A stretch of 64,000 bases of DNA, taken from Chryseomicrobium sp. FSL W7-1435 (GTDB taxonomy: Bacteria; Bacillota; Bacilli; Bacillales_A; Planococcaceae). A model generated the notes under the pieces. The model saw nothing but the letters and a program-made list of their open reading frames with translations. It ran no database searches and had not been told where the DNA came from. Every line of letters starts with the position of its first letter. Position 1 is the stretch's first letter. Location of the stretch: contig NZ_CP151997.1 of NCBI RefSeq assembly GCF_038595005.1, forward strand, positions 1,178,001 through 1,242,000. The letters run 5' to 3'. Position numbers and translations under genes: made by a program. Below are positions 29,055 through 47,739 of the stretch, one piece after another.

Positions 29055-29406
29055 GGGGACGTTATGGATTCGACAGGAATGGTCTGAGCTTGGGTGGCGC
29101 GTCAGAGGCTCGGCTCTGTAAAAACGGAACCTATAATAACAGGCAAAACAAACAACAACCTAGCATTCGCTGCTTAATAGCGTGAATCTGCTCTATGTAC
29201 CCATCGCCCATGTGGCTATGTAGAGCTCACTCTCAGTGGGATACGGTAACTGGTGCAGTCTGAGTCAGTTGCAAGAGATTTTCGGACTAGTCCATCTAAC
29301 GCCTGCTTATCGGCAAAGGATCGGACGAAATTCAGTAGGTAAGCTACACGCGTAGAAGCTCAAGTATTAGAGTTTCTGGACGCGGGTTCAAATCCCGCCG
29401 TCTCCA
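29055..29406 (+). ncRNA. ssrA: Transfer-messenger RNA (tmRNA)
   Basis: The 5' end GGGGACGTTATGGATTCGAC pairs with the 3' CGTCTCC, and the 3' TPsiC arm GGGTTCAAATCCC is present. The tag ORF is read as (A)GKTNNNLAFAA followed by TAA, a shortened relative of the Bacillus tag. The 3' terminal A is followed by TTCG, so the full CCA is not genome-encoded. The last 96 nt are duplicated at 32855-32950, showing that this gene has been an integration site. Confidence 0.96.
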
Positions 29407-29468
29407 TTCGAATCTTGCTTGTGTGGCAAGGTTCAATGGTTTATAACCGGAAGTATCATCTTCCAAAA

Positions 29469-30440: not shown

Positions 30441-32351
30441 TTAACCTGTTTGAAAAGCCTCATTTATCTCTAATGAGTTAAAGTTTTCCTCACCAATAAC
30501 GAATTTAAAAAAACGAAGAAGCTTTTCTTGATACTGATTAAATTCATTATTTATTAGTTTTGTAGCCTTCCAAGGCTTGTCCTGTAACCATGTTTCCTCG
30601 AAAATGAATCCTTCGAAGTTAGGTTCGTGTGTGAGGCGAAACTCCTCACTACCAATGGTTTCTAAGATATTATTGTTGCTTCCTTCATCAAAGGGTATGT
30701 TGTCTAAGTCATGTATTAAATAAGCTTGAATGCCGAAGTGTTCCAATACCTCATAGTAAGCTTTTTGTGTCAATTTGCCATTGCATGGTATTACTGACAC
30801 TTCTCGCAAAAATCGTTCTAAAGCATCTGCTTTGTCAGGATGCAGTTCTTGTAATTTGTTTTTTATGGCAGTAATACTGGCAACTTCACAATCACCCTCA
30901 ACAAGGACTACCCTCTTAGCAAAAAATGCTTCTAATGTGGCAGTATTGAAATTTAATAACATTCTCATTCTGTTACGTTTCTCTGCAGCGGATTCTCCAT
31001 TATATATATTTTCGTTTACTTGAATAATCTTTGATGAAAGGTCATCTAGTTTTTGCATAACAACAGTACCTTGATGTCTATCCGCTAAATCTATGAAATT
31101 TTCAGAGTGTGATGTACAAACAACTTGTGCCAAACTGTGTTTTGAAATCTCGACTAATGAATCTCGCATTTTGCGTTGGAGATGTGGATGCAGATATATT
31201 TCAGGTTCTTCAATTAAGAATAAGAAGCTTCTCTTCCACTCTTGGGTTGTGTCATCATTGTCCAAGTTATTTTGAGTTAACTGTTCTGCCATAAGTTCCA
31301 AAAGCGATAATATTAGCATGCGTTGAACCCCGTTACCTTGCTGGCTAGGGCTAGTAATAAGATTATTATACTTTAGTAATATATTGGAGTTTAAGTGGAG
31401 CTTTTCCATTACCTCTGGAATATTAAAATCAACACTTGCTTCGACATCTAATAACCGTTGTAACTTACGACTTATTTTCCCTTCCAAATTCTGTACTTCA
31501 GCATGACGAGTTTCATTATTGAATATATTTTTTAATGCTGTTAGAGATGACTTGAAATTTTCGATTTCTGGCGTTTGATTCAAGTGATTTTCAAATAAGG
31601 CTGCGGCAATTTGGTTTGCTGCCGATTTATTTTTATTTGCATCTGCTTCATCATCAATTAATTTGACTGCTGGGACATAGATTACTTTAGGCATAATAGA
31701 TCGTAAATTTGAAGAGAACCCATTGGGGTTTTTCATCCACTCCGGTTCGCCTTCAGTTATCAGATCAGAATTATTAAGGAAAACATATTCTGTAAAGTCA
31801 GCTTTTTTGGGTTTTACTATTGTTCCATTCGATATTTCTCGATCTGCACAATATGAATTATATTGCTCAATAAGTGCAGGAGAAACTTCAGCAAAAATTC
31901 GAGCGTTCCAAATACCGTCCATGTTAATTTCTGATATAGAGCGGTTAGGAATAAATACTTCAAAGGGAACATCACTGTCCTTTACCGTGGAATTAGACCA
32001 AATTCGGCGTATTTTCATTTCCCCATTAAAAATATATGGTTTAATAAACCTATTTCCTCTGTCTAAGTCATTAAAATCATCAAAAACAACTAATATCTCC
32101 ATATATTCAGTTGTATTAACGGGTTCTCTTTTAAAGGAAAACATATTAATTGAAGGAATATTAGGTATATCTGTTTCTGGAAGGAATAACTTTAGGGCTT
32201 CAAGTATAGATGATTTACCAATATTATTTTCTCCTATGATTGTAATGAAGTCAGACGCTCCTTCACCGTCAACTCTCGGAAAAGTTAGAGTACAAGGTTC
32301 TCGATAACCAACATTTTTGAAATTTTTAATAGTAAATTCTTTTATTCTCAT
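30441..32351 (-). CDS. OLD-family ATP-dependent endonuclease (ABC-type ATPase + Toprim)
   Basis: A 636-residue protein. N-terminal ABC/SMC-type ATPase: Walker A GENNIGKS (40-47), a signature-like SPSQQGNGVQRM (334-345), Walker B LFLIEEPE (377-384) and H-loop TSHSENF (413-419). C-terminal Toprim nuclease domain: VEGDCE (484-489) and DLD (548-550). This is the overcoming-lysogenization-defect architecture, also used by Gabija GajA, but no UvrD-like GajB partner is adjacent, so it looks like a solitary OLD nuclease. AGAGGAG lies 5 nt before the start. It is AT-rich compared with flanking chromosome and lies between the ssrA 3' end and its duplicate, so it is probably island cargo with an anti-phage role (inference). 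Confidence 0.82.
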   Translation of the reverse strand: MRIKEFTIKNFKNVGYREPCTLTFPRVDGEGASDFITIIGENNIGKSSILEALKLFLPETDIPNIPSINMFSFKREPVNTTEYMEILVVFDDFNDLDRGNRFIKPYIFNGEMKIRRIWSNSTVKDSDVPFEVFIPNRSISEINMDGIWNARIFAEVSPALIEQYNSYCADREISNGTIVKPKKADFTEYVFLNNSDLITEGEPEWMKNPNGFSSNLRSIMPKVIYVPAVKLIDDEADANKNKSAANQIAAALFENHLNQTPEIENFKSSLTALKNIFNNETRHAEVQNLEGKISRKLQRLLDVEASVDFNIPEVMEKLHLNSNILLKYNNLITSPSQQGNGVQRMLILSLLELMAEQLTQNNLDNDDTTQEWKRSFLFLIEEPEIYLHPHLQRKMRDSLVEISKHSLAQVVCTSHSENFIDLADRHQGTVVMQKLDDLSSKIIQVNENIYNGESAAEKRNRMRMLLNFNTATLEAFFAKRVVLVEGDCEVASITAIKNKLQELHPDKADALERFLREVSVIPCNGKLTQKAYYEVLEHFGIQAYLIHDLDNIPFDEGSNNNILETIGSEEFRLTHEPNFEGFIFEETWLQDKPWKATKLINNEFNQYQEKLLRFFKFVIGEENFNSLEINEAFQTG

Positions 32352-32854: not shown

Positions 32855-32950
32855 CGGCAAAGGATTGGACGAACTTCAGTAGGTAAGCTAAACGTGTAGA
32901 AGCTCAAGTATTAGAGTTTTTGGACGCGGGTTCAAATACCGCCGTCTACA
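32855..32950 (+). repeat. Duplicated 3' end of ssrA (att-like direct repeat)
   Basis: A 96-nt copy of 29311-29406 with 7 mismatches and no gaps. It includes the tRNA-like 3' domain and T-arm but no 5' half, so it is not a functional tmRNA; two changes disturb the T-stem and acceptor (AATACCG and TCTACA). Such copies arise when an element integrates into a tmRNA 3' end. Confidence 0.9.
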
Positions 32951-33012
32951 TTTTTCAGTAGCTTATCATAGCTGTGATCAATCGTTTATAACCCGGAAGT
33001 ATAAACTTCCAC

Positions 33013-33266: not shown

Positions 33267-33413
33267 AAAACTCCTCCAGAAGACAAGACCCCGGGGGAAG
33301 TGCCTGTTTTAAACTCAATTCTGGCAGTTGGTGAGACTCAGTTCGAGACAACGTCGAAGAAGTGTGGCTCTTCAACTGTCGATCTAGAATTGTGGCTGTG
33401 ACAGGCTCCGGAT
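33267..33413. repeat. Repeat F, copy 2
   Basis: Close copy of 29515-29663, following the duplicated ssrA 3' end in the same order, with element G between them. Confidence 0.8.
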
Positions 33414-33421
33414 TTAAAGTA

Positions 33422-33547
33422 AGTGCCTGTCCCAAAAACAATTCCAACATTCATGACTATTCAATAGATATACAATTCGAAGCCGCATGGCTGTATTGTT
33501 AGGTGAATGAAGATAAATTGTGTCTGTATATTTTGTGGGACAGGCAC
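33422..33547. repeat. Miniature element M, copy 2
   Basis: 126 bp, ends GTGCCTGTCCCAAAAA and TTTGTGGGACAGGCAC, the best preserved of three copies. It is closest to copy 3 in the interior (GATATACAATTCGA-GCCGCAT, TGTTAGGTGA). Confidence 0.82.
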
Positions 33548-33576
33548 CAAATGGATTTTAGTTGAATCAGTAAAGA

Positions 33577-33622: not shown

Positions 33623-33782
33623 GTCTCTAATCAATTGATGTAATTTCATACTCAATCCGAATATACCTTGATATTCTCCATTTTTGATTGATTTAGTATT
33701 ATCTTTAAACTCTGCGAAGAATTCAGGCATTAATATTGAGTTACTTAGAGCATTTCTTGTTGGATAAGTGTCGAATGGCTTT

Positions 33783-34000
33783 TCAATTTATTGTCTCCGC
33801 ATTAACCCTATTAGTCACATGAGCATAAATGTTCATGGTTGTCTGCATATCACCATACCCCAAACAATCATATACTTCTTTAACCTTTATGCATACCAGG
33901 GAAGGCGCTTACGTGAAATAGGGTGTTAGGTTTGAAGTTATTGACCTTCTCTAAAAATCATGGAACACATTTTAGTAAAGGGATTTACCGGGCATGTATT
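33783..34000 (-). pseudogene. Remnant of a tyrosine recombinase (integrase)
   Basis: Read on the minus strand, 33783-33890 translates to an integrase C terminus, with GYGDMQTTMNIYAHVT including the catalytic Tyr in the NIYAHV context, ending at TGA (33783-33785). Upstream, LTPYFT is followed by an in-frame TAA and a shift into the next part, and F-DFLEKVNNFKPNT-like residues extend to about 34000. Only this broken C-terminal part remains. It marks an integrative element next to the ssrA duplicate. Confidence 0.8.
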
Positions 34001-34058
34001 TTGTTTTGGGATAGTATGGTAATTGTAATTTTATTGCATCTAACCTAAAGTTTAAAGG

Positions 34059-34067
34059 TGGTATAAT
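34059..34067 (+). promoter_or_regulatory. Extended -10 promoter of the helicase operon
   Basis: TGGTATAAT (TGn plus perfect -10 at 34062-34067), 32 nt before the first gene. A TTGCAT at 34034-34039 is at 22 bp, too far for a normal -35. Confidence 0.6.
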
Positions 34068-34099
34068 TAGCCTAATAAAAAAGATAAGAGGGTGCTGGA

Positions 34100-35824
34100 A
34101 TGGCTAGATTTCCATACGAAAGTGAGATTCAACAAGCAGTAAGTTTATTAATCAATCAATATAAAATACCATATAAAATTTTAATGGATTTAGTAGGTAA
34201 AGAGCATTATAATCAACTAACTTCTATTTTAGATACATTAGGAGAAAACAAGCTGACAGAGAAAGAACTTGCAAGAATTTTAGTTGTACAAAAAGGCTCT
34301 GAGTTATTTATGGGTTCAAGTGAGGCAGTGCGAGAATTAAGACTACATCTATTAAGAAGGTTAGATGTAAAAGATTTAGTAGCACTTTATGAAAGAAATC
34401 CAGATAGTAAAAGAAGGATTACTTCACCTGGTTACATGGCCACTCCGCTTTCAACTAAGAAATGGTCACCCGGAAAACGCTGGGCAAGAGATTTTGTTAC
34501 TACATTAAAATTTCCACTAGTTTTTGCCGGTATTGAAAATGATCGCACTGAACGTGCAACAGCTGTTACAGACATCGAGCCAAGAAAAATAATTCCACCA
34601 TTAGCTCCTTACCAAGAAAGTTTAAAACAAAAGATGCTAGAAGTATTGAATCAACAACAAGAAAAAACACGCTGTATCGTTACATTACCTACAGGTGGTG
34701 GTAAAACACGAATTGCTGTAGAAAGCTTTATCGATTGGTTACAGCCACGCTTTGCAGAAGGAAAATATATGATCTGGATTGCACAAGGGGAAGAACTTTG
34801 TGAACAGGCGATAGCTTGTATATCAGATATGTGGCAAGAAAGAGAATTTGCTTATGCGTTGAGAGTTTATCGCTATTTTGGAGGCTCAACAATTGAATTG
34901 GATGATTTAGTAGGTGGGGTTGTTGTAGGAAGCATACAACAAATAGTATCAAGAATTAATTCAGGTGATAGTGCTTTTGAGGAAATAATTAGAAATTGTG
35001 GCGCTATGATTATTGATGAAGCTCATCACGCAACAGCGACTAGTTATAATGATTTAATCGATTATGCAAAGAGAATTGTAGGGGAGGATTTATTCCCGAT
35101 TTGTGGACTAACAGCTACGCCTGGTCGAAATATGGATCAGACAAATATTTTAGTCGAGCAGTTTCAGGCTAACTTAATACGCCCCAAATTACCTGAAAAG
35201 GATGAGTATGAATTAAATCCATTATTGTATTTCCAGGAACAGGGCTATTTAGCAAAGCCACAATATCTATTATTCAAAGATGAACCGATTGAATGGCATG
35301 AAGATCTGTTTATAAATGGTGAGGTTTCTAGTGAATTTTTAAGGGATCTGTCTACTAACAGAGAAAGAAATCTAAAAATAATAGATTATATGTTGGGTAT
35401 ACCATTAGATAGCTCAGTATTAGTTTATGCATGTACAGTTGAACACGCTGAATTTTTAACTACAGTTTTAAATGCAATAGGAAAGAAAGCAGCATGTATT
35501 TCTGCCAAAACACCAAAAGCAATCCGTCGTATGCATATCCTGGCATTTAAGAAAAAAGAAATTCAGTATTTATTTAATTATGGTGTATTAACAACGGGTT
35601 TTGATGCCCCAAAAGTTGATCATTTATTAATTTGTAGACCTACCTCGAGTATGGTTTTATATGAGCAAATGGTGGGTCGTGGTCTTCGAGGACCTAAATT
35701 TGGTGGAACAGAAAATTGTAAGATTGTTGATTTTTCAGCCAATATTCATACGCATGGTAAACCACTAGCATATTCACGCTTTACGGAGGAATGGCGATTA
35801 TTAGAGGAGGTTAGCAGTAAATGA
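34100..35824 (+). CDS. SF2 DEAH-box helicase, first gene of a DISARM-like operon
   Basis: 574 residues. The N-terminal ~165 residues have no recognised motif. Helicase core: PYQESLKQKML (Q-motif-like, about 170), Walker A LPTGGGKT (196-203), DEAH (306-309), TATP (338-341), motif V TTGFDAP (498-504) and motif VI QMVGRGLRG (523-531). This is a Res-III/SSL2-type DNA helicase or translocase. It overlaps the next gene by 4 nt, so the three genes form one operon. It is much shorter than the SNF2-type DrmD of class 1 DISARM and different in family, so it is not simply drmD. A defence role is inferred from neighbours. The gene is AT-rich relative to the core genome. Confidence 0.8.
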   Translation: MARFPYESEIQQAVSLLINQYKIPYKILMDLVGKEHYNQLTSILDTLGENKLTEKELARILVVQKGSELFMGSSEAVRELRLHLLRRLDVKDLVALYERNPDSKRRITSPGYMATPLSTKKWSPGKRWARDFVTTLKFPLVFAGIENDRTERATAVTDIEPRKIIPPLAPYQESLKQKMLEVLNQQQEKTRCIVTLPTGGGKTRIAVESFIDWLQPRFAEGKYMIWIAQGEELCEQAIACISDMWQEREFAYALRVYRYFGGSTIELDDLVGGVVVGSIQQIVSRINSGDSAFEEIIRNCGAMIIDEAHHATATSYNDLIDYAKRIVGEDLFPICGLTATPGRNMDQTNILVEQFQANLIRPKLPEKDEYELNPLLYFQEQGYLAKPQYLLFKDEPIEWHEDLFINGEVSSEFLRDLSTNRERNLKIIDYMLGIPLDSSVLVYACTVEHAEFLTTVLNAIGKKAACISAKTPKAIRRMHILAFKKKEIQYLFNYGVLTTGFDAPKVDHLLICRPTSSMVLYEQMVGRGLRGPKFGGTENCKIVDFSANIHTHGKPLAYSRFTEEWRLLEEVSSK

Positions 35825-38800
35825 TGAAAACAGGAGCTAAAAAGCTTTTTGATTACTTACAGCAGCATCAAGAACTGTTTGTAAAAGATTTTAAAATATT
35901 ATTTGAAGTAAAATCTACAATGCTTAGGATCGTCAAGGAGTATTCGGATGTTTTTGTTGTGACAGACGATAAAATTACACTTAAGGCCATAGCGAATAAT
36001 GAATCCGCCGATTATATTGGAGCGCGTAAAACTGTACATAATGAACTCAGTCGCTTTTTAGTTGGACCATTTAAGGAAAATGAAGAGTTAGGGAGCTTTA
36101 AACGACCGATGCAGCTCTACTTAACGGGAAAGCTTGTACCATTTGGTTCTACTGGTAGTGTTGAGGATGAAAGAAAGCTAGGAATAGAAACAGCCGTTAT
36201 CATAGAGGAGGATTCTGTTGAAGATCGTTTAAGCTCTAGACAAATGTTCCGTCCTTCAAGCATGGGCTTTAGCTTCAAAATGAATAATTTAAATCCTATT
36301 AAAATTGATGCTAGTTGGGCGACGTATGAAGGAAAAACGCATGCGAGAACACCTCATCAGCTTGAATGGGAGATTGATTTGCAAGAAAATGTGCAGAAAG
36401 GTGAACTAAATTACAACAAGAAGAAAGCGGACTCTAATGAACAATTCCCTGGTCAAATACATTATTCATGGACTAAACGTAATGGTCTTTACCATATTAG
36501 TATTTTCTTATTAAATAACTACACTCGTGAAAGTTATCCTGAGCAATTCGAGATTATGTTTCAAACGGCATTGAAAGTAAATGTAAATAAACAGGATGTA
36601 GCAACATTCCATTCGGTAGCAGACCGATTTAATGTGGCCGATGAACTTTTGTACCGTGAGTATAAAGAGGTAGCAATAGGACATGGTGTTGGCGTAGATT
36701 GGCATGAATCATCTAAAACGATGGAAATTATGACGACGTGGTTACCATTTTATGAGCTTCCAGTTGTAGAGCATATGACTATTCCAGACGAAGCGTTTGA
36801 GATGGAGGCATTAAGTAAATTACCTTTAAATGAGCTTAAAGAAAAACTTGAAAAATTACCTTATTTTTACGAGCGGTGGTTAGTTTTACAAAAAGAGCAT
36901 ATTGAAGGTTTAGATTTACATTTGAAGCAAGAAGCTGAGCGCAATGTTGAACAGATTGAGAAAATTATTGCACGCTTAAAAGAAGGTATCGCTCTTGTCG
37001 TAGCTGGTGATGATACTTTAGAAAATAAGGCATTTCGATTTGCGAATGATGCAATGTCTAAACAGCGTGCGATGTCAGCTGTTGCAGTTCAATATAGAAC
37101 ATCTGGTAAGAGAGTAGCACCTGTCTATAATGGTAGCTGGCGTTTATTCCAAATTATTTTCGTATTAATGAATGTAGCAGGCATATCAGATGAAAACCAT
37201 GAGGACCGTGAAGTTGTTGATTTAATTTGGTTCCCTACAGGTGGGGGGAAAACAGAGGCCTACTTGGGAGTTGCAGCATATGCTATGGCGCACCGTCGAT
37301 TAGCCGGTGATGTAAATGATGTTAGTAGCTACGCAGGTATTACAATTTTTATGCGATACACATTACGTTTGTTGACTACACAGCAATTCCAACGCGCGGC
37401 AGCTCTTATTTGTGCTGCGGAGGATATTCGTTTAAAAAATGTACCGTTATATGGTGAGCTACCGTTTAGTATTGGTTTATGGATAGGTGGAGAATCATCA
37501 CCCAATAAACTAGAAGAAGCGAAAGAAAAGCTCAAAATGTTAATGGACGGTCAAGAAGTTAAAAGTGGCAATCCAATGCAATTATTGAACTGTCCGTGGT
37601 GTGGCACCGAGCTAACACCTCAGGATTATTTGATTAGTGATAGTGAAACACAGCATATTGGTTGCCATGAGCCATCTTGTTTATTTTATAAAAAATTGCC
37701 GATTTATACGGTAGATGAAGCAATTTATCAACATGTTCCTACATTATTAATTGGTACCGTGGATAAAATAGCACAGTTACCATGGAAGAAAGATATGCAC
37801 GAATTATTTGGACGAAAGAACTTATATCATCCAGAGAAGGGCTTTGCTTATAAAATAGAAGGCTCTAAGCGTGGTTATAAAAAAGTATCAAGATTAAAAC
37901 CACCTTCATTGATTATTCAAGATGAGCTACACCTTATTTCGGGTCCACTAGGGTCTTTAACAGGGCTGTATGAAGTGGCAGTAGATTTACTAACGTCAAA
38001 TGGCGGAAAACGTGCAAAAGTCATTGCATCTACAGCCACAATTAGAGGTGCAAAGGAACAAATTTTACATCTCTATGGAAGAGATTATTTGCAATTCCCA
38101 TTAGCTGTTCAAAGGCAAAACGATACATTTGTTGCTCATGAGGTCGCTATAACTGAAAAGCCTGGTCGTTTATATGTAGGTGTGTGTTCTCCGGGTGTAA
38201 GTAATAAAATCCAAGCTATTCAATTATTCGCTGCTTTGACGACGATTACTCGTTCAAGACTGTCTAAAGAGATGGATCCTTACTATACAATGCTTGGTTA
38301 TTTTAATACGGTAAAAGAGCTTTCAGGCATGTTAACAACATTCCAGGATGAAATTGTAAGTAGATTAGATTTTTTAGATCCTAAAAAAGAATTTGACCAT
38401 GAATTAGTAGTAGAAGAAATGACGAGTCGTAAAAAAGCGTATGAAATTCCCTTACTATTAGCTCAAATGGAAAAAGGGTATGCGGAGAAAGATGCATTAG
38501 ATGCCGTTCTTGCAACAAACATGATTTCAGTAGGTGTCGATGTGGACCGGCTTGGTGTTATGGTCGTACAGGGCCAGCCGAAAACGACATCTGAATATAT
38601 CCAAGCAACAAGTCGTGTAGGACGTAAATATCCAGGGTTGGTTATTACAACTTTGAATTCAATGCGCTCACGAGATTTATCGCACTTTGAACAATTCCGT
38701 GCATATCATCAGGCATTGTACCGTCATGTAGAAGCAATGAGTGTGACACCTTTTGCAAGTGGTGCACTATATAAAGGCTTAAGAGGTGCGGTAGTAGGGT

Positions 38801-39147
38801 TGCTGCGTCAAATGATTCCGGAATTAAGCGCAGAAAATGCGGTTAATAAATTTTCCAGAAGGGAAGAAGTAGATGCTATAATTGATCAATTTTTAAAACG
38901 TGCGGACGCAACGGAAATTGATACGACTGAATTAAAGCAGGCCACTGAGAAATTACTTGAATGGTGGCACCAGGCAGTAGAGGACTATCCTAATGCGAAT
39001 ACAATAAGTTATAAGAAAAACCTAAAAAATAGAAAACCCTCACTTTTACGCCAATTTGGTGAAGAAGGTAGAAGTTCAGTTACCCAACCAGCCATGATGT
39101 CACTACGAAATGTAGAAGGAACAATTGAAATAGAGGTGAAGAAATAA
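35821..39147 (+). CDS. drmA: DrmA-like helicase (DISARM core protein)
   Basis: 1108 residues. The long N-terminal half (about 1-460) has no catalytic motif. The helicase half has WFPTGGGKTEAYLG (Walker A, 470-483), a C4 zinc-binding-type insertion (Cys591, 594, 615, 620), QDELH (Walker B, 700-704, with HLISGPLGSLTGLYE), STATI, TNMISVGVDVDR (899-910) and motif VI QATSRVGR (928-935). The QDELH and PKTTSEYIQATSRVGR signatures are those of DrmA, the DISARM helicase. It overlaps its upstream neighbour by 4 nt and the DrmB-like gene by 1 nt. In DISARM, DrmA and DrmB form a DNA-binding complex that blocks incoming phage DNA; that function here is inferred. Confidence 0.82.
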   Translation: MMKTGAKKLFDYLQQHQELFVKDFKILFEVKSTMLRIVKEYSDVFVVTDDKITLKAIANNESADYIGARKTVHNELSRFLVGPFKENEELGSFKRPMQLYLTGKLVPFGSTGSVEDERKLGIETAVIIEEDSVEDRLSSRQMFRPSSMGFSFKMNNLNPIKIDASWATYEGKTHARTPHQLEWEIDLQENVQKGELNYNKKKADSNEQFPGQIHYSWTKRNGLYHISIFLLNNYTRESYPEQFEIMFQTALKVNVNKQDVATFHSVADRFNVADELLYREYKEVAIGHGVGVDWHESSKTMEIMTTWLPFYELPVVEHMTIPDEAFEMEALSKLPLNELKEKLEKLPYFYERWLVLQKEHIEGLDLHLKQEAERNVEQIEKIIARLKEGIALVVAGDDTLENKAFRFANDAMSKQRAMSAVAVQYRTSGKRVAPVYNGSWRLFQIIFVLMNVAGISDENHEDREVVDLIWFPTGGGKTEAYLGVAAYAMAHRRLAGDVNDVSSYAGITIFMRYTLRLLTTQQFQRAAALICAAEDIRLKNVPLYGELPFSIGLWIGGESSPNKLEEAKEKLKMLMDGQEVKSGNPMQLLNCPWCGTELTPQDYLISDSETQHIGCHEPSCLFYKKLPIYTVDEAIYQHVPTLLIGTVDKIAQLPWKKDMHELFGRKNLYHPEKGFAYKIEGSKRGYKKVSRLKPPSLIIQDELHLISGPLGSLTGLYEVAVDLLTSNGGKRAKVIASTATIRGAKEQILHLYGRDYLQFPLAVQRQNDTFVAHEVAITEKPGRLYVGVCSPGVSNKIQAIQLFAALTTITRSRLSKEMDPYYTMLGYFNTVKELSGMLTTFQDEIVSRLDFLDPKKEFDHELVVEEMTSRKKAYEIPLLLAQMEKGYAEKDALDAVLATNMISVGVDVDRLGVMVVQGQPKTTSEYIQATSRVGRKYPGLVITTLNSMRSRDLSHFEQFRAYHQALYRHVEAMSVTPFASGALYKGLRGAVVGLLRQMIPELSAENAVNKFSRREEVDAIIDQFLKRADATEIDTTELKQATEKLLEWWHQAVEDYPNANTISYKKNLKNRKPSLLRQFGEEGRSSVTQPAMMSLRNVEGTIEIEVKK

Positions 39148-40889
39148 TGCTAGATAATGAAGAAAAGATTCGCCCATCTCAGCTAATATATCATTCCGGT
39201 CCAGGTGCTATTCTCGACCTTTTAGATGAGAGCGTCATGGTTTTAGCAGCAGATCTATGGGCTACTCATGGAGCACTAAAGGATTTTGATAAGCGTATTA
39301 CAAAATATTTAAAAGTCGATCACGTACGTATATTGAATGAACAAACAGATAAAATTAAAGTTAAATCGGTAAGATTCCCACGGTGGAAAATCTGCCCTAA
39401 ATGTGGGATAATGACGACATTTAATAATTCGCACTGTTGGTCATGTGAAAAAGCAGGTAGGGGCGATGTAAAGCTTTATCCAAGTCGTTTTGTAACAGTA
39501 TGTAATTTTGGACATATTAGTGATTTCCCTTATGACAAATGGGTGCATAAAGGGGGGAGCTGCGACAAACCAAGTCTGCAATTATTACGTAGTAGTGAAA
39601 GTGGCTCATTATCTGATTTAGCTGTTAAGTGTAATAACTGCCAACAAATTCGTTCGCTAGGGAAAATTATGAAACCAGATGATGAGGATAAGCATTTGTT
39701 TGATTGCACGAATGAATCACCTTGGTTAGAGAAGAAGCGTACTCAAGAGCTAGAGAATGAACAACCAAAGTTGTGTAAAAATACTATGCGAACTTTCTTA
39801 CGAGGAGCATCTAATATTTATTCGCCGCATGTACTAAGCTTTTTAAAAGTCCCATTAACAGAAACTACAGGAGACAATCCGTTAGCCACTATCTTACCAG
39901 AACTTGAAATTAGTAGAGAGGAATATTTAGATGCAGGTGATAAGGAAAAGGCTTTGGATAGAATAGCAAAGCGCTACCATATTACCCAAAATGCATATGT
40001 TGATCTTGAAAGGTTATTAATGGGTGATGATTTAAATGTAGAGCAAAGCTACGAATCTATTCGAAAGCAAGAATGGAATACATTGTCACAGCCATATTAT
40101 AATGAAACTAATATTCAATTTAAGTCTGAGAAAATTGATATTCATCCAAAGTTACAATCGTATTTTGCGGCTATTCATCGTGTGGATTCTGTTCCTGAAA
40201 TACAGGTAGTTAAAGGGTTTAGTCGTATAGATTATATCGATCGTTTTGAAGAGGGTGATGTGCATATGAATCGTATTATACAGAACCCAAAACAAAATTG
40301 GCTACCAGCTGTGCAAAATTTTGGTGAAGGCATTTTCTTTGTATTTGATGCAAGAAAGTTAGCTTTATGGGAACAAAATGAAACCATCACAGCTGCCATT
40401 ATTGAAAGATATAATCATCAGCGTGCTGAATTTGATAACGAGCCTTTGCCATTGATGGGGCGCCATGTCTTACTACACACGTTTAGCCATGCATTACTTA
40501 AGGAATTAGCTGCCCATTCGGGATATGGCACTACATCGTTAAAAGAACGATTATATGTAGATAGCTCGATGCACGGCATATTTATTTATACAGCATCAGG
40601 TGATTCAGAAGGTAGTCTAGGTGGTTTAACAGCTCTATCTAAGCCAGAGTTGCTATACCCAATTGTTTTAAGAGCAATTGAACGAATGCAATATTGTTCA
40701 TCTGATCCGAATTGTTCTGACGGTAAATTCCAATTTAACCTGTCTGCAAATGCAGCGGCATGTCATAGCTGCTCACATGTTTCAGAAACATCATGTGAGT
40801 GGGGGAATCAATTACTAGACCGTCGTACATTGCTAAATATTAACCAAAATGAAAAATTTGGATTTTTTGATAATTTATTGGATGAGTAG
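39147..40889 (+). CDS. drmB: DrmB-like DUF1998 protein (DISARM core protein)
   Basis: 580 residues. It starts RPSQLIYHSGPGAILDL, the usual DrmB opening. An N-terminal zinc ribbon has C83-x2-C86 and C97-x2-C100. The C-terminal DUF1998 region holds HTFSHALLKELA, YTASGDSEGSLGGL, and a Cys cluster CSSDPNC / CHSCSH / SCEWGNQLLDRR. The protein is the partner of DrmA. It is the last gene of the operon: no DrmC (phospholipase D) or DNA methyltransferase follows, and 80 nt downstream miniature element M begins. Confidence 0.83.
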   Translation: MLDNEEKIRPSQLIYHSGPGAILDLLDESVMVLAADLWATHGALKDFDKRITKYLKVDHVRILNEQTDKIKVKSVRFPRWKICPKCGIMTTFNNSHCWSCEKAGRGDVKLYPSRFVTVCNFGHISDFPYDKWVHKGGSCDKPSLQLLRSSESGSLSDLAVKCNNCQQIRSLGKIMKPDDEDKHLFDCTNESPWLEKKRTQELENEQPKLCKNTMRTFLRGASNIYSPHVLSFLKVPLTETTGDNPLATILPELEISREEYLDAGDKEKALDRIAKRYHITQNAYVDLERLLMGDDLNVEQSYESIRKQEWNTLSQPYYNETNIQFKSEKIDIHPKLQSYFAAIHRVDSVPEIQVVKGFSRIDYIDRFEEGDVHMNRIIQNPKQNWLPAVQNFGEGIFFVFDARKLALWEQNETITAAIIERYNHQRAEFDNEPLPLMGRHVLLHTFSHALLKELAAHSGYGTTSLKERLYVDSSMHGIFIYTASGDSEGSLGGLTALSKPELLYPIVLRAIERMQYCSSDPNCSDGKFQFNLSANAAACHSCSHVSETSCEWGNQLLDRRTLLNINQNEKFGFFDNLLDE

Positions 40890-40968
40890 TAAAACAAAGT
40901 CTTTCTACAGCGGTAAGATCGATATTGCCTCATACAATACCTTCAAGAGAGATGGATTTTAAATAAAG

Positions 40969-41087
40969 GTGCCTGCCCCAAAACAATTCCGACATTCATG
41001 ACTATTCAGGAGATATACAATTCGATGCCGCATTCCTGTGTTGTTAGGTGAGTGAAGATGAGTTGTGTCTGTATATTTTGTGGGCAC
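40969..41087. repeat. Miniature element M, copy 3 (right end damaged)
   Basis: Left end GTGCCTGCCCCAAAA, interior closely like copy 2, right end shortened to TTTTGTGGGCAC (ACAG lost). Its right edge lies 14 nt before the truncated small ORF at 41102. Confidence 0.75.
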
Positions 41088-41101
41088 CAAATGAATTTTA
41101 A

Positions 41102-41233
41102 TTGGGTAAGTACCAATTAGATCAAAAAAGCAAAGCACTCGCTATCAAGTATCAAGATGGCAAAAGACCAGCTGTTTCAAATAAAAAAGAAAAGCTGGAT
41201 CAGATTCGTGAAGCGTATTTGAAGAAGAAGTAG
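41102..41233 (+). pseudogene. Second copy of the small lysine-rich ORF, start lost
   Basis: Codes for 43 residues beginning (L)GKYQLDQKSKALAIKYQDGK, with about 90% identity over its length to the ORF at 43680. The ATG of the paralogue is TTG here and no ribosome-binding site precedes it, because the upstream sequence is the miniature element. It ends at TAG seven codons earlier than the paralogue. Probably not expressed, though a TTG start cannot be excluded. Confidence 0.65.
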
Positions 41234-44117: not shown

Positions 44118-44510
44118 ATGATTTATCGCATTAGTGAGTTTGCAGATAAATGTGGAGTTAATAAAGAAACGATTAGATATTACGAGAGAAAAAATTTATT
44201 ACAAGAACCTCACCGAACGGAAGCTGGTTATCGGATATATTCATATGATGACGTTAAGCGTGTTGGGTTTATTAAACGAATACAGGAACTTGGTTTTTCT
44301 TTAAGCGAGATTTATAAATTACTTGGTGTTGTAGATAAAGATGAAGTTCGTTGTCAAGACATGTTCGAATTTGTTTCTAAAAAACAAAAGGAAGTGCAAA
44401 AACAAATAGAGGATTTAAAACGAATTGAAACTATGTTAGACGACTTAAAACAACGATGTCCAGATGAAAAGCAATTACATTCGTGTCCAATAATAGAAAC
44501 ATTAACATGA
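44118..44510 (+). CDS. merR: Mercury(II)-responsive regulator MerR
   Basis: A 130-residue MerR-family activator: N-terminal winged HTH (YRISEFADKCGVNKETIRYYERKNLL), a long dimerisation helix, and the three Hg(II)-binding cysteines Cys79, Cys114 and Cys123, at the positions of the Bacillus RC607 MerR. It represses and, with Hg(II), activates the promoter directly upstream by untwisting its long spacer. Same strand as merA with a 24-nt gap. Confidence 0.92.
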   Translation: MIYRISEFADKCGVNKETIRYYERKNLLQEPHRTEAGYRIYSYDDVKRVGFIKRIQELGFSLSEIYKLLGVVDKDEVRCQDMFEFVSKKQKEVQKQIEDLKRIETMLDDLKQRCPDEKQLHSCPIIETLT

Positions 44511-44534
44511 GACATTAACGAAAGGGGCTTTTTT

Positions 44535-46175
44535 ATGAATAAATTTAAGGTAAATATTCAAGGAATGACTTGTACGGGTTGTGAAAAACACGTAGAATCA
44601 GCACTTGAAAAGATAGGTGCTAAAAATATTGAGTCTAATTTTCGTCGTGGTGAAGCAGTATTTGAACTGCCCGATGATATTGAGGTTGAAAGTGCAATAA
44701 AGGCGATTGATGAAGCAAATTACCAAGCCGGAGAAATTGAAGAAGTATCATCACTAGAAAACGTGGCGTTAATTAATGAAGACGTTTATGACCTTCTTAT
44801 TATTGGTTCTGGTGCTGCTGCCTTTTCTTCGGCAATTAAAGCTATAGAATACGGTGCAAAAGTTGGAATGATTGAGCGTGGAACGGTTGGGGGAACCTGT
44901 GTGAATATTGGCTGTGTTCCGTCAAAAACTCTTCTTAGGGCAGGGGAAATCAATCATTTATCAAAAGACAATCCGTTTAAAGGTTTACAAACATCCGCTG
45001 GAGAAGTGGATTTAGCTAGTTTAATCACGCAAAAGGATAAATTGGTGAGCGAACTTCGGAATCAAAAATATATGGATTTAATTGATGAATATAATTTTGA
45101 TTTAATTAAAGGTGAAGCAAAATTCGTTGATGCTAGTACGGTTGAGGTCAATGGGGCAAAGTTATCTGCAAAACGCTTTTTAATTGCAACAGGTGCATCG
45201 CCTTCGTTGCCCCAAATTTCAGGACTTGAAAAAATGGACTATTTAACTAGTACAACACTTCTTGAGTTAAAGAAAATACCAAAACGATTAACTGTAATTG
45301 GCTCAGGATACATTGGAATGGAGCTTGGACAACTATTTCATCATTTAGGTTCAGAAATAACGCTTATGCAAAGAAGTGAGCGACTTTTAAAGGAGTATGA
45401 TCCTGAGATTTCAGAGTCAGTTGAAAAAGCGTTAATTGAACAGGGTATAAACCTTGTCAAAGGGGCAACTTTTGAGCGTGTTGAACAAAGTGGAGAGATA
45501 AAAAAGGTTTACATAACAGTAAATGGCAGTAAAGAAGTCATTGAATCAGATCAGTTACTTGTTGCCACTGGAAGAAAACCAAATACGGATTCTTTAAATT
45601 TAAGTGCAGCAGGTGTTGAAACTGGAAAAAATAATGAAATCCTGATCAATGATTTTGGTCAAACAAGTAATGAAAAGATTTATGCAGCAGGAGATGTGAC
45701 GTTAGGACCGCAATTTGTATATGTAGCAGCCTATGAAGGTGGAATTATTACTGATAATGCTATCGGTGGATTAAACAAAAAAATAGATTTATCGGTAGTT
45801 CCTGCTGTTACGTTTACGAATCCGACGGTTGCAACGGTTGGTTTAACAGAAGAACAAGCAAAAGAGAAAGGGTATGATGTGAAGACATCTGTATTACCTT
45901 TAGATGCTGTTCCAAGAGCAATTGTAAACCGTGAAACAACCGGTGTATTTAAACTAGTAGCAGATGCAGAAACACTAAAAGTATTAGGGGTTCATATTGT
46001 ATCTGAGAATGCAGGAGATGTCATCTATGCAGCATCATTAGCTGTTAAATTTGGCTTAACGATAGAAGATTTAACAGAAACCCTAGCACCATATTTAACA
46101 ATGGCTGAAGGGCTAAAATTAGCTGCACTTACGTTCGATAAAGATGTTTCGAAATTATCTTGTTGTGCAGGCTAA
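44535..46175 (+). CDS. merA: Mercuric reductase MerA
   Basis: A 546-residue flavoenzyme reducing Hg(II) to Hg(0) with NADPH. One N-terminal heavy-metal-associated domain (GMTCTGC, Cys13/Cys16), FAD-binding [10 protein letters not shown], redox-active Cys122/Cys127 in [13 protein letters not shown]-binding [11 protein letters not shown], and the C-terminal Cys543-Cys544 pair that receives Hg(II). All catalytic residues are intact. No mercury transporter (merT/merP/merE-like) is adjacent, unlike larger mer operons. Gene content is AT-rich and the unit is followed by a transposase, so it was probably acquired. Confidence 0.95.
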
Positions 46176-46176
46176 G

Positions 46177-46416
46177 GGAACTTTTTTTACAACTCCCTAT
46201 TCAAGTGAACCAGCTAATACTGTACTAAAGGTGTGCAGTAGTTTAGCAAAGTCTACAAAAGATTTCATACACTATTTTGCGATCACCCATTATATAAATG
46301 CTTTAAGGGATTTTCTAAGTGCATTTGTGGTCACAAAAATAATTTAACACTGATGATTTCGACATCAAATCTATAATTGATACCTTAACACCGCAGAGTA
46401 ATAAAGGATGAACAAT
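46177..46416. other. merA-transposase junction
   Basis: 240 bp that must contain the end of the mer segment and the left end of the ISL3 element. I see no gene. AAAAATAAT occurs here near 46335 and, inverted, near 47773, possibly parts of degenerate IS ends. Confidence 0.3.
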
Positions 46417-47739
46417 ATGTCAGACTTATTATCCCTACCAGACATTAAAACAATAGAACCACCACAAGAAAATGAAACCGATATGATATTTAAAGTTGAA
46501 GCAGTCGGACCACCTGAACGTTGTCCTGAATGTGGTTTTGACAAGTTGTACAAACACAGTTCAAGAAATCAACTAATTATGGATTTGCCCATTCGTTTAA
46601 AGCGAGTGGGCTTACAATTGAACCGTAGACGATACAAGTGTCGTGAATGCAGATCTACCTTCTGGGAACGCCTAATATCTGTAGATGAAAAGCGTAGTAT
46701 GACCAAAAGGCTTTTAAAGTCCATTCAAGAGCAATCCATGTCTAAGACCTTTGTAGAAGTCGCAGAAAGCGTTGGTGTTGACGAGAAAACTATTAGGAAC
46801 GTTTTTAAGGACTATGTGGCACTCAAAGAACGTGAATACCAGTTTGAAACTCCTAAGTGGCTTGGGATAGACGAGATACATATTATCCGTAGACCTCGGC
46901 TTGTATTGACTAATATTGAACGCAGGACTATTTATGACATCAAGCCAAACCGTAACAAGGAAACAGTCATCCAACGTCTTTCAGAAATCAGTGACAGGAC
47001 TTATATTGAGTACGTCACAATGGATATGTGGAAGCCTTACAAAGACGCAGTGAACACTATCCTTCCACACGCTAAAGTTGTCGTAGATAAGTTTCATGTA
47101 GTTAGAATGGCTAATCAAGCCTTAGATAACGTCAGAAAGTCTTTGAAAGCCCATATGAGCCAAAAAGAAAGACGTACCCTTATGCGTGAAAGGTTTATCC
47201 TTCTAAAGCGTAAACACGATCTAAATGAACGTGAATCATTCCTCTTAGATACTTGGTTAGGTAATCTTCCTGCTTTAAAAGAAGCCTATGAACTCAAAGA
47301 AGAGTTTTACTGGATATGGGATACTCCTGATCCAGATGAAGGTCGTCTTCGTTATAGTCAATGGAGACACCGTTGTATGTCCAGTAACTCTAAAGACGCA
47401 TATAAAGACCTCGTGAGAGCCGTAGACAACTGGCATGTCGAAATATTCAACTACTTTGATAAAAGGCTCACTAACGCTTATACGGAGTCAATTAACAGCA
47501 TTATTAGGCAGGTAGAGCGAATGGGTAGAGGTTACTCGTTTGATGCCTTACGAGCCAAAATCCTTTTCAATGAGAAGCTCCATAAAAAGCGTAAGCCACG
47601 ATTTAATTCAAGTGCTTTCAATAAAGCTATGTTATACGATACTTTCAATTGGTATGAAGTGAATGATCACGACATTACAGACAACTTTGGTGTCGATTTT
47701 TCCACACTTATTAAGAATTTGGAGAAGGGTGATTTATAA
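46417..47739 (+). CDS. ISL3-family transposase
   Basis: A 440-residue transposase: N-terminal zinc ribbon (CPECGFDKLYKH and YKCRECRSTFWE), HTH (KTFVEVAESVGVDEKTIRNVF), and a DDE-type catalytic domain (LGIDEIHI, VVDKFHVVRMANQALD, and AYTESINSIIRQVERMGRGYSF with the terminal Glu). The reading frame is intact, so the element may be active. The ATG at 46417 has AAAGGA 7 nt upstream. Terminal inverted repeats could not be fixed confidently. It sits just after merA. Confidence 0.9.
   Translation: MSDLLSLPDIKTIEPPQENETDMIFKVEAVGPPERCPECGFDKLYKHSSRNQLIMDLPIRLKRVGLQLNRRRYKCRECRSTFWERLISVDEKRSMTKRLLKSIQEQSMSKTFVEVAESVGVDEKTIRNVFKDYVALKEREYQFETPKWLGIDEIHIIRRPRLVLTNIERRTIYDIKPNRNKETVIQRLSEISDRTYIEYVTMDMWKPYKDAVNTILPHAKVVVDKFHVVRMANQALDNVRKSLKAHMSQKERRTLMRERFILLKRKHDLNERESFLLDTWLGNLPALKEAYELKEEFYWIWDTPDPDEGRLRYSQWRHRCMSSNSKDAYKDLVRAVDNWHVEIFNYFDKRLTNAYTESINSIIRQVERMGRGYSFDALRAKILFNEKLHKKRKPRFNSSAFNKAMLYDTFNWYEVNDHDITDNFGVDFSTLIKNLEKGDL

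What the first reader, a model, noticed from the sequence alone, without database searches (positions are those of the whole stretch)
34100..40889. DISARM-like three-gene operon lacking methyltransferase and DrmC
Directly visible: three overlapping genes (4-nt and 1-nt overlaps) behind one extended -10 promoter. Two carry strong DrmA signatures (GGGKTEAYLG, QDELHLISGPLG, EYIQATSRVGR) and DrmB signatures (SQLIYHSGPGAILDL, DUF1998 Cys cluster). Canonical DISARM adds a DNA methyltransferase, DrmC (PLD) and either DrmD or DrmE. None is present here; instead a 574-aa DEAH helicase with an unassigned N-terminal domain leads the operon. The set may be a methylation-independent variant that distinguishes self from phage DNA by other means, with the first helicase as sensor.
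Basis: partly seen in the sequence, partly recalled or inferred. Interest (0 to 1): 0.82.

Follow-up and report, generated by a model that had tools for sequence, protein, structure and literature searches.

The report
Methylase-free DISARM variant with extra helicase
Three overlapping genes form a compact, mobile, probably anti-virus module that keeps the DNA-motor core of the known DISARM defence but has swapped its DNA-marking enzyme and nuclease for a second helicase, which raises the testable question of how it tells the cell's own DNA from a virus's.

Summary
Genes at 34100-35824, 35821-39147 and 39147-40889 overlap by 4 and 1 nt. They encode a RadD-like SF2 helicase with a new ~145-aa helical N-terminal domain, a bona fide DrmA (NCBIfam DrmAS, 991 bits, cut-off 950) and a DrmB (435 bits, cut-off 240). 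No methyltransferase, DrmC, DrmD or DrmE lies beside them. This is not a one-off loss: the same ordered trio, with the same 4-nt helicase-DrmA overlap, occurs in five other Bacillales genomes (50-97% identity). One is a 7,005-bp block, 96.6% identical, in another genus, with unrelated flanks on both sides: a self-contained mobile cassette. Trio DrmA proteins form a 100%-supported clade with an extra N-terminal winged-helix domain. Their nearest relatives (60%) lack both that domain and the helicase, and instead carry an SNF2 helicase plus type III Mod/Res. Some hosts (Solibacillus merdavium) show no DNA methyltransferase in four families searched, so a cognate mark looks dispensable; in others the trio abuts a type III BREX. 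Verdict: a new DISARM-related variant, most likely discriminating by DNA structure rather than methylation. The sensor role of the first helicase is untested.

The parts
34059..34067 (+). extended -10 element TGGTATAAT of the operon promoter
   Evidence: sequence; conserved in the 97% copy at the same distance (-41) and as TGNTA...T at -45 to -47 in other loci
34100..35824 (+). RadD-like SF2 helicase (574 aa), proposed third DISARM-variant component
   Evidence: ResIII + Helicase_C; NF053632 RadD 140.6 bits, far below its cut-off 720; PDB RadD 6jde, query residues 167-551; Foldseek top hits RadD
34100..34534 (+). helicase N-terminal all-helical domain (residues 1-145), no known family
   Evidence: AF2 blocks mostly pLDDT 77-95; no Pfam hit alone; no PDB sequence relative
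34694..34711 (+). helicase motif I GGGKTR (residues 199-204)
   Evidence: G199, G201, K202, T203, R204 invariant in 27 homologues
35015..35026 (+). helicase motif II DEAH (residues 306-309)
   Evidence: invariant in 27 homologues
35821..39147 (+). DrmA (1108 aa), YprA/DISARM helicase
   Evidence: NF038325 991.5 bits > 950; PADLOC DrmA 797 bits; PDB DrmA 7s9v E 2e-154; AF2 model matches 7s9v, TM 0.81
35821..35982 (+). trio-specific N-terminal winged-helix domain of DrmA (residues 1-54)
   Evidence: present in the trio DrmA proteins, absent from all other DrmA rows shown, including the 60% sister group; AF2 H-E-H-H-E-E, pLDDT 81-91
36133..36249 (+). disordered acidic segment of DrmA (residues 105-143), equivalent in position to the autoinhibitory trigger loop
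   Evidence: pLDDT < 50 at 105-143; 39-residue loop (107-145) vs 46-66 in three class 1 DrmA proteins; role of loop from PMC9142583
37240..37254 (+). DrmA Walker A GGGKT (residues 474-478)
   Evidence: invariant in 25 DrmA proteins
37921..37932 (+). DrmA motif II DELH (residues 701-704)
   Evidence: D701, E702 and H704 invariant
39147..40889 (+). DrmB (580 aa), OB/zinc/DUF1998 partner of DrmA
   Evidence: NF038324 434.7 > 240; PDB DrmB 7s9v_B E 1.6e-67
40482..40772 (+). MZB/DUF1998 zinc domain of DrmB (residues 446-542)
   Evidence: PF09369 37.8 bits, cut-off 24.2
33969..40969 (.). extent of the mobile cassette shared with Solibacillus merdavium (7,005 bp, 96.6%)
   Evidence: blastn, homology ends on both sides
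33782..33890 (-). C-terminal remnant of a tyrosine recombinase (KEVYDCLGYGDMQTTMNIYAHV); 40 bp of it also precede the S. merdavium cassette
   Evidence: six-frame translation; blastn 33844-33883
33413..33572 (+). left copy of a dispersed ~160-nt repeat flanking the trio
40958..41112 (+). right copy of the same repeat (84%)

Best explanation
The trio is a complete, horizontally mobile, three-component anti-phage system derived from the DISARM core. DrmA and DrmB form the known heterodimeric ssDNA motor (shown by homology). Its disordered loop keeps it off intact duplex DNA, and single-stranded or 5'-overhang DNA of incoming or replicating phage releases it (inferred from Serratia DrmAB). The RadD-like helicase, which replaces DrmD/DrmE and the methyltransferase, probably works at the same intermediates: it opens or remodels ends, forks or recombination intermediates and hands ssDNA to DrmAB, with the trio-specific winged helix of DrmA as an added DNA- or partner-binding part (inferred). 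Lacking a nuclease, the set blocks phage replication by unwinding and clearing DNA, or lets a host nuclease finish (inferred). Self is spared by DNA structure, not by a cognate methyl mark (inferred; supported by a host without candidate methyltransferases).
For: Trio recurs in six genomes with a conserved 4-nt helicase-DrmA overlap. It is a discrete 7-kb cassette at 96.6% between genera under purifying selection in all three genes (dN/dS 0.14-0.19). Trio DrmA clade has 100% support and carries an exclusive winged helix. Motor motifs are intact. The helicase is also linked to a second, different DrmAB-DrmC system in three genomes, in the same helicase clade. Acidic disordered loop retained. 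S. merdavium has no PF00145, and no PF01555 or PF07669 hit over cut-off; its PF02384 hits resemble short proteins seen in several of the other trio genomes. Defence-rich neighbourhoods: OLD nuclease, type III BREX, LeoBC-like dynamins, DpdF-like helicase.
Against: No phage assay exists. Methyltransferases lie near the trio in 3 of 6 genomes (type III BREX twice, C5 pair once), and a type I HsdM is elsewhere in the window's genome. From my own recollection, removing the methylase from a class 2 DISARM was reported to harm the host, which would argue for a mark; that paper was not held. Physical interaction of the helicase with DrmAB is not tested, and most of its relatives are solitary genes. 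D12/Dam-type methyltransferases (PF02086) were not searched.
Confidence: 0.55

Rival explanations
1. The trio is an accessory module that borrows self-marking from another modification system in the cell (type III BREX, type I or C5 methyltransferases) and is not methylation-independent.
For: Trio is ~160 bp 5' of brxF in Evansella clarkii and B. massilionigeriensis, each followed by BrxC, PglXI-type methyltransferase, PglZ, BrxA and an SNF2 helicase (models run on the E. clarkii locus). Two C5 methyltransferases ~3.9 kb away in Aquibacillus sediminis. HsdM in the window's genome. The 60% sister DrmAB sits in an operon with Mod/Res.
Against: The neighbours differ between genomes; S. merdavium has the 97% copy without any candidate methyltransferase in the families searched; the transferred unit carries only the three genes.
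Confidence: 0.2
2. A degenerate DISARM that lost its methyltransferase and nuclease and is no longer a working system.
For: Sister DrmAB loci keep a methyltransferase and an SNF2 helicase; recombinase remnants beside the trio.
Against: Three intact overlapping genes, dN/dS 0.14-0.19, same composition over 50-97% identity in six genomes, recent transfer of exactly this set.
Confidence: 0.08
3. The set acts on DNA repair, recombination or plasmid/ICE exclusion rather than on phage; the RadD-like gene is a repair helicase.
For: Closest solved structure is the repair helicase RadD; YprA/MrfA relatives repair DNA (PMC12458937); relatives of the helicase stand alone in many Bacillaceae.
Against: DrmA/DrmB are DISARM-type, not MrfA-type; patchy distribution (3 trios in 261 genomes of the family); mobile cassette in defence islands.
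Confidence: 0.15

Closest known systems
DISARM class 1 (DrmD, DrmMI, DrmA, DrmB, DrmC)
   Same: DrmA/DrmB core, 31% identity in the structural alignment to Serratia DrmA and TM 0.81; trio DrmA clade lies on the class-1 side of a midpoint-rooted tree, weakly
   Different: no methyltransferase, no SNF2 DrmD, no PLD DrmC; DrmA lacks the long class 1 N-terminus and has a winged helix instead; has a RadD-like helicase
DISARM class 2 (DrmE, DrmA, DrmB, DrmC, DrmMII)
   Same: DrmA/DrmB core; common in the same bacterial family
   Different: no DrmE, no C5 methyltransferase, no DrmC
DrmA-DrmB-SNF2-DUF4391-Mod-Res loci (G826, G817)
   Same: nearest DrmA/DrmB relatives (60% / 52%); one is also inserted beside ssrA
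   Different: carry a type III R-M and HKD-SNF2 helicase, no RadD-like helicase, no winged helix on DrmA
ARMADA / TALON / BRIGADE (YprA systems, PMC12458937)
   Same: YprA-family motor
   Different: there the DUF1998 module is fused to the helicase and comes with a BrxHII-like helicase and methyltransferase (ARMADA) or other nucleases; here it is split as in DISARM
RadD (repair helicase) and SauUSI (type IV restriction helicase)
   Same: SF2 core of the first gene
   Different: RadD has no N-terminal helical domain, and its C-terminal part is missing here; no nuclease domain as in SauUSI

Membership tests
DISARM (any class) | DrmA helicase | tested here: met
   NF038325 991.5 bits, cut-off 950; 7s9v
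DISARM (any class) | DrmB, DUF1998 protein encoded separately next to DrmA | tested here: met
   NF038324 434.7 bits, cut-off 240
DISARM (any class) | DNA methyltransferase DrmMI or DrmMII in the locus | tested here: not met
   none recognised among ORFs 28-48 kb; PF00145, PF01555, PF07669 absent from the genome, HsdM 1.4 Mb away; absent from the three-gene unit in all six trio loci
DISARM (any class) | DrmC PLD nuclease (reported dispensable in places) | tested here: not met
   no PLD hit in the window; none between or directly after the trio genes
DISARM class 1 | DrmD SNF2-like helicase | tested here: not met
   first gene is RadD/ResIII type, no DrmD model hit
DISARM class 2 | DrmE | tested here: not met
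   no DrmE_C hit to the three proteins, while the model does find DrmE in related loci
DISARM (any class) | anti-phage activity | not testable with these tools
   needs phage challenge
[quoted passage not shown]
   DUF1998 on a separate protein, no nuclease or PglX
RadD orthologue | NF053632 cut-off 720 bits | tested here: not met
   140.6 bits

The most novel reading that the evidence does not exclude
A stand-alone, methylation-independent DISARM variant: a DrmAB motor with a fused winged helix plus a RadD-like helicase that separates phage from host DNA by DNA structure (ends, gaps, recombination or replication intermediates) and needs neither a modification enzyme nor a dedicated nuclease.
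Probability: 0.5. Interest if true: 0.72.

Novelty: new variant of a known kind. Interest (0 to 1): 0.56.

Why it matters
It is unclear whether DISARM discriminates self from non-self by methylation or by DNA structure. The Serratia structure showed a structural switch, but in a system that still carries methyltransferases. A natural, mobile DrmAB set without any, found in a host with no candidate methyltransferase in the families searched, makes that question directly testable in a small three-gene construct. It also suggests that the DrmAB motor is a module that swaps partners: SNF2 plus type III R-M, DrmE plus C5 methyltransferase, BREX III alongside, or a RadD-like helicase.

Tried and rejected
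ARMADA, TALON and BRIGADE: rejected on domain architecture (DUF1998 split, no nuclease; and PMC12458937). OLD nuclease (30441-32351) as fourth component: rejected, because it lies in its own element bounded by a 98-nt ssrA repeat and is not shared by other trio loci. Simple recent loss of a methyltransferase: rejected, since no trio relative down to 50% identity has one inside the three-gene unit. Trio on sequenced phages, plasmids or viral contigs: no match to the trio DrmA in phages or viral contigs, and plasmid DrmA hits are all under 60% identity and more distant relatives. Known domain for the helicase N-terminus: none found; Foldseek of the whole model only returned the helicase core. 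Literature: no description of this trio in the held library; Ofir 2018 was not held.

Full report
Observation. The second and third proteins are DrmA and DrmB by curated cut-offs, by PADLOC, by solved-structure sequence matches to Serratia DrmAB 7s9v and, for DrmA, by fold (AF2 mean pLDDT 82; Foldseek TM 0.81 to 7s9v). The first protein is an SF2 helicase closest to RadD, but far below the RadD equivalog cut-off. Its N-terminal ~145 residues fold as a confident all-helical domain with no Pfam or PDB relative.

Recurrence. One scan of 84,980 species genomes with a helicase profile gave 27 loci. In five of them the helicase is followed by DrmA and DrmB in the same order: Solibacillus merdavium (97/97/96%), Metasolibacillus meyeri (80/74/73%), Bacillus massilionigeriensis (60/58/50%), Evansella clarkii (59/57/52%) and Aquibacillus sediminis (60/57/53%). 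The 4-nt helicase-DrmA overlap is kept in all five, as in the window. In three (two Rossellomorea, Sutcliffiella) the helicase lies 3' of a different DrmA-DrmB-DrmC locus, with C5-methyltransferase-like ORFs nearby and Vsr-like ORFs in two. In the remaining 19 it stands alone, counting Bacillus badius. In the helicase tree the trio and DISARM-linked copies share a 12-row group with three solitary ones, opposite 16 solitary ones (99% SH-aLRT).

DrmA clade. Trio DrmA proteins are one clade (100%) on a long stem of 0.96. A search of all 261 held genomes of the family found 16 with DrmA at E <= 1e-100. Three are trios (the window's species, S. merdavium and one that matches M. meyeri) and two are 60% relatives. 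Those two (G826, G817) have no helicase upstream and no winged helix. Their operon continues with an HKD-SNF2 helicase, DUF4391, a Mod-type N6/N4 methyltransferase and, complete in G817, a Res subunit. So the trio looks like a partner swap: the helicase and winged helix are present where the methyltransferase and SNF2 helicase are absent. The direction of change is inferred, because the tree is not rooted.

A mobile unit. Window and S. merdavium share exactly 7,005 bp at 96.6%, ending ~130 bp before and ~80 bp after the genes, with unrelated flanks. Both copies have a tyrosine-recombinase C-terminal remnant just upstream, with a 40-bp stretch in common. The window copy lies behind ssrA and a 98-nt ssrA duplication that bounds a separate OLD-nuclease element. 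It is flanked by two copies of a dispersed ~160-nt repeat found at 21 places in the genome. All three genes are under purifying selection (dN/dS 0.14-0.19).

Methylation. In the window's own complete genome, PF00145, PF01555 and PF07669 find nothing, and PF02384 finds one clear HsdM far away, a weak frame with two stops and a sub-cut-off hit. S. merdavium has no PF00145 hit and no PF01555 or PF07669 hit above cut-off; its PF02384 hits are a 356-aa protein of a size also seen in several of the other trio genomes, and a 278-aa one just over the cut-off, both probably not DNA methyltransferases (inference). Against this, E. clarkii and B. massilionigeriensis carry a type III BREX (BrxF, BrxC, PglXI-type methyltransferase, PglZ, BrxA, SNF2) starting ~160 bp after DrmB, and A. 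sediminis has two C5 methyltransferases ~3.9 kb downstream. The common denominator is that no methyltransferase belongs to the conserved unit.

Mechanism. Serratia DrmAB is held off duplex DNA by an unstructured loop and is switched on by 5'-overhang ssDNA; DrmC is dispensable (PMC9142583). The window DrmA keeps all motor motifs, an acidic segment predicted disordered at the same place (105-143) and, if the gap-free offset at the end of the alignment holds, the base-contacting valine (V1098 for V1296). That valine is nearly invariant in DrmA proteins with and without methyltransferases, so by itself it says little about methyl sensing. I therefore favour structural discrimination with the RadD-like helicase acting on the same ssDNA-bearing intermediates. 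The cooperation of helicase and DrmAB is inferred from conserved linkage in two different DrmAB lineages and from the overlap, not shown.

Status. DISARM membership fails on methyltransferase, DrmC, DrmD and DrmE, so I call it a DISARM-related variant, not a DISARM system of class 1 or 2. [quoted passage not shown] This particular trio was not found in the held literature.

Noticed in passing
window 29311-29408, 32855-32952, 30441-32351: A 98-nt duplication of the ssrA (tmRNA) 3' end (93%) bounds a ~3.5-kb element carrying an OLD-family ATPase/TOPRIM nuclease: an ssrA-integrated defence element next to the trio.
   Followed up: partly
window 33413-33572 and 40958-41112: Dispersed ~160-nt repeat with inverted ends (GTGCCTGTCCC / GGGACAGGCAC), 21 places in the genome, two of its most alike copies flanking the trio.
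   Followed up: partly
window 44118-47739: MerR-type regulator and HMA-domain flavoprotein resembling mercuric reductase, followed by an ISL3 transposase.
   Followed up: no
L124, L125, L133 (G826, G817): DrmA-DrmB joined to HKD-SNF2 helicase, DUF4391 and type III Mod/Res: a DISARM core plus type III R-M hybrid.
   Followed up: partly
L049, L050, L060: DrmA-DrmB operons with an Hsp70-like gene (FGIDFGTTNSA), a UvrD/GajB-like helicase (tested in L049) and two unknown proteins: possibly another undescribed DISARM variant.
   Followed up: partly
L068/L088, L084/L090: Trio directly 5' of a type III BREX whose SNF2 helicase matches a PADLOC DrmD model with 1120 bits (tested in L088), so automated callers may mistake the hybrid for class 1 DISARM.
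   Followed up: yes
L086 1967-5528: Two dynamin-like GTPases (one LeoBC-like, 68 bits) just upstream of the M. meyeri trio.
   Followed up: no
L061 17394-20678: DpdF-like 1094-aa helicase just downstream of the S. merdavium trio.
   Followed up: no
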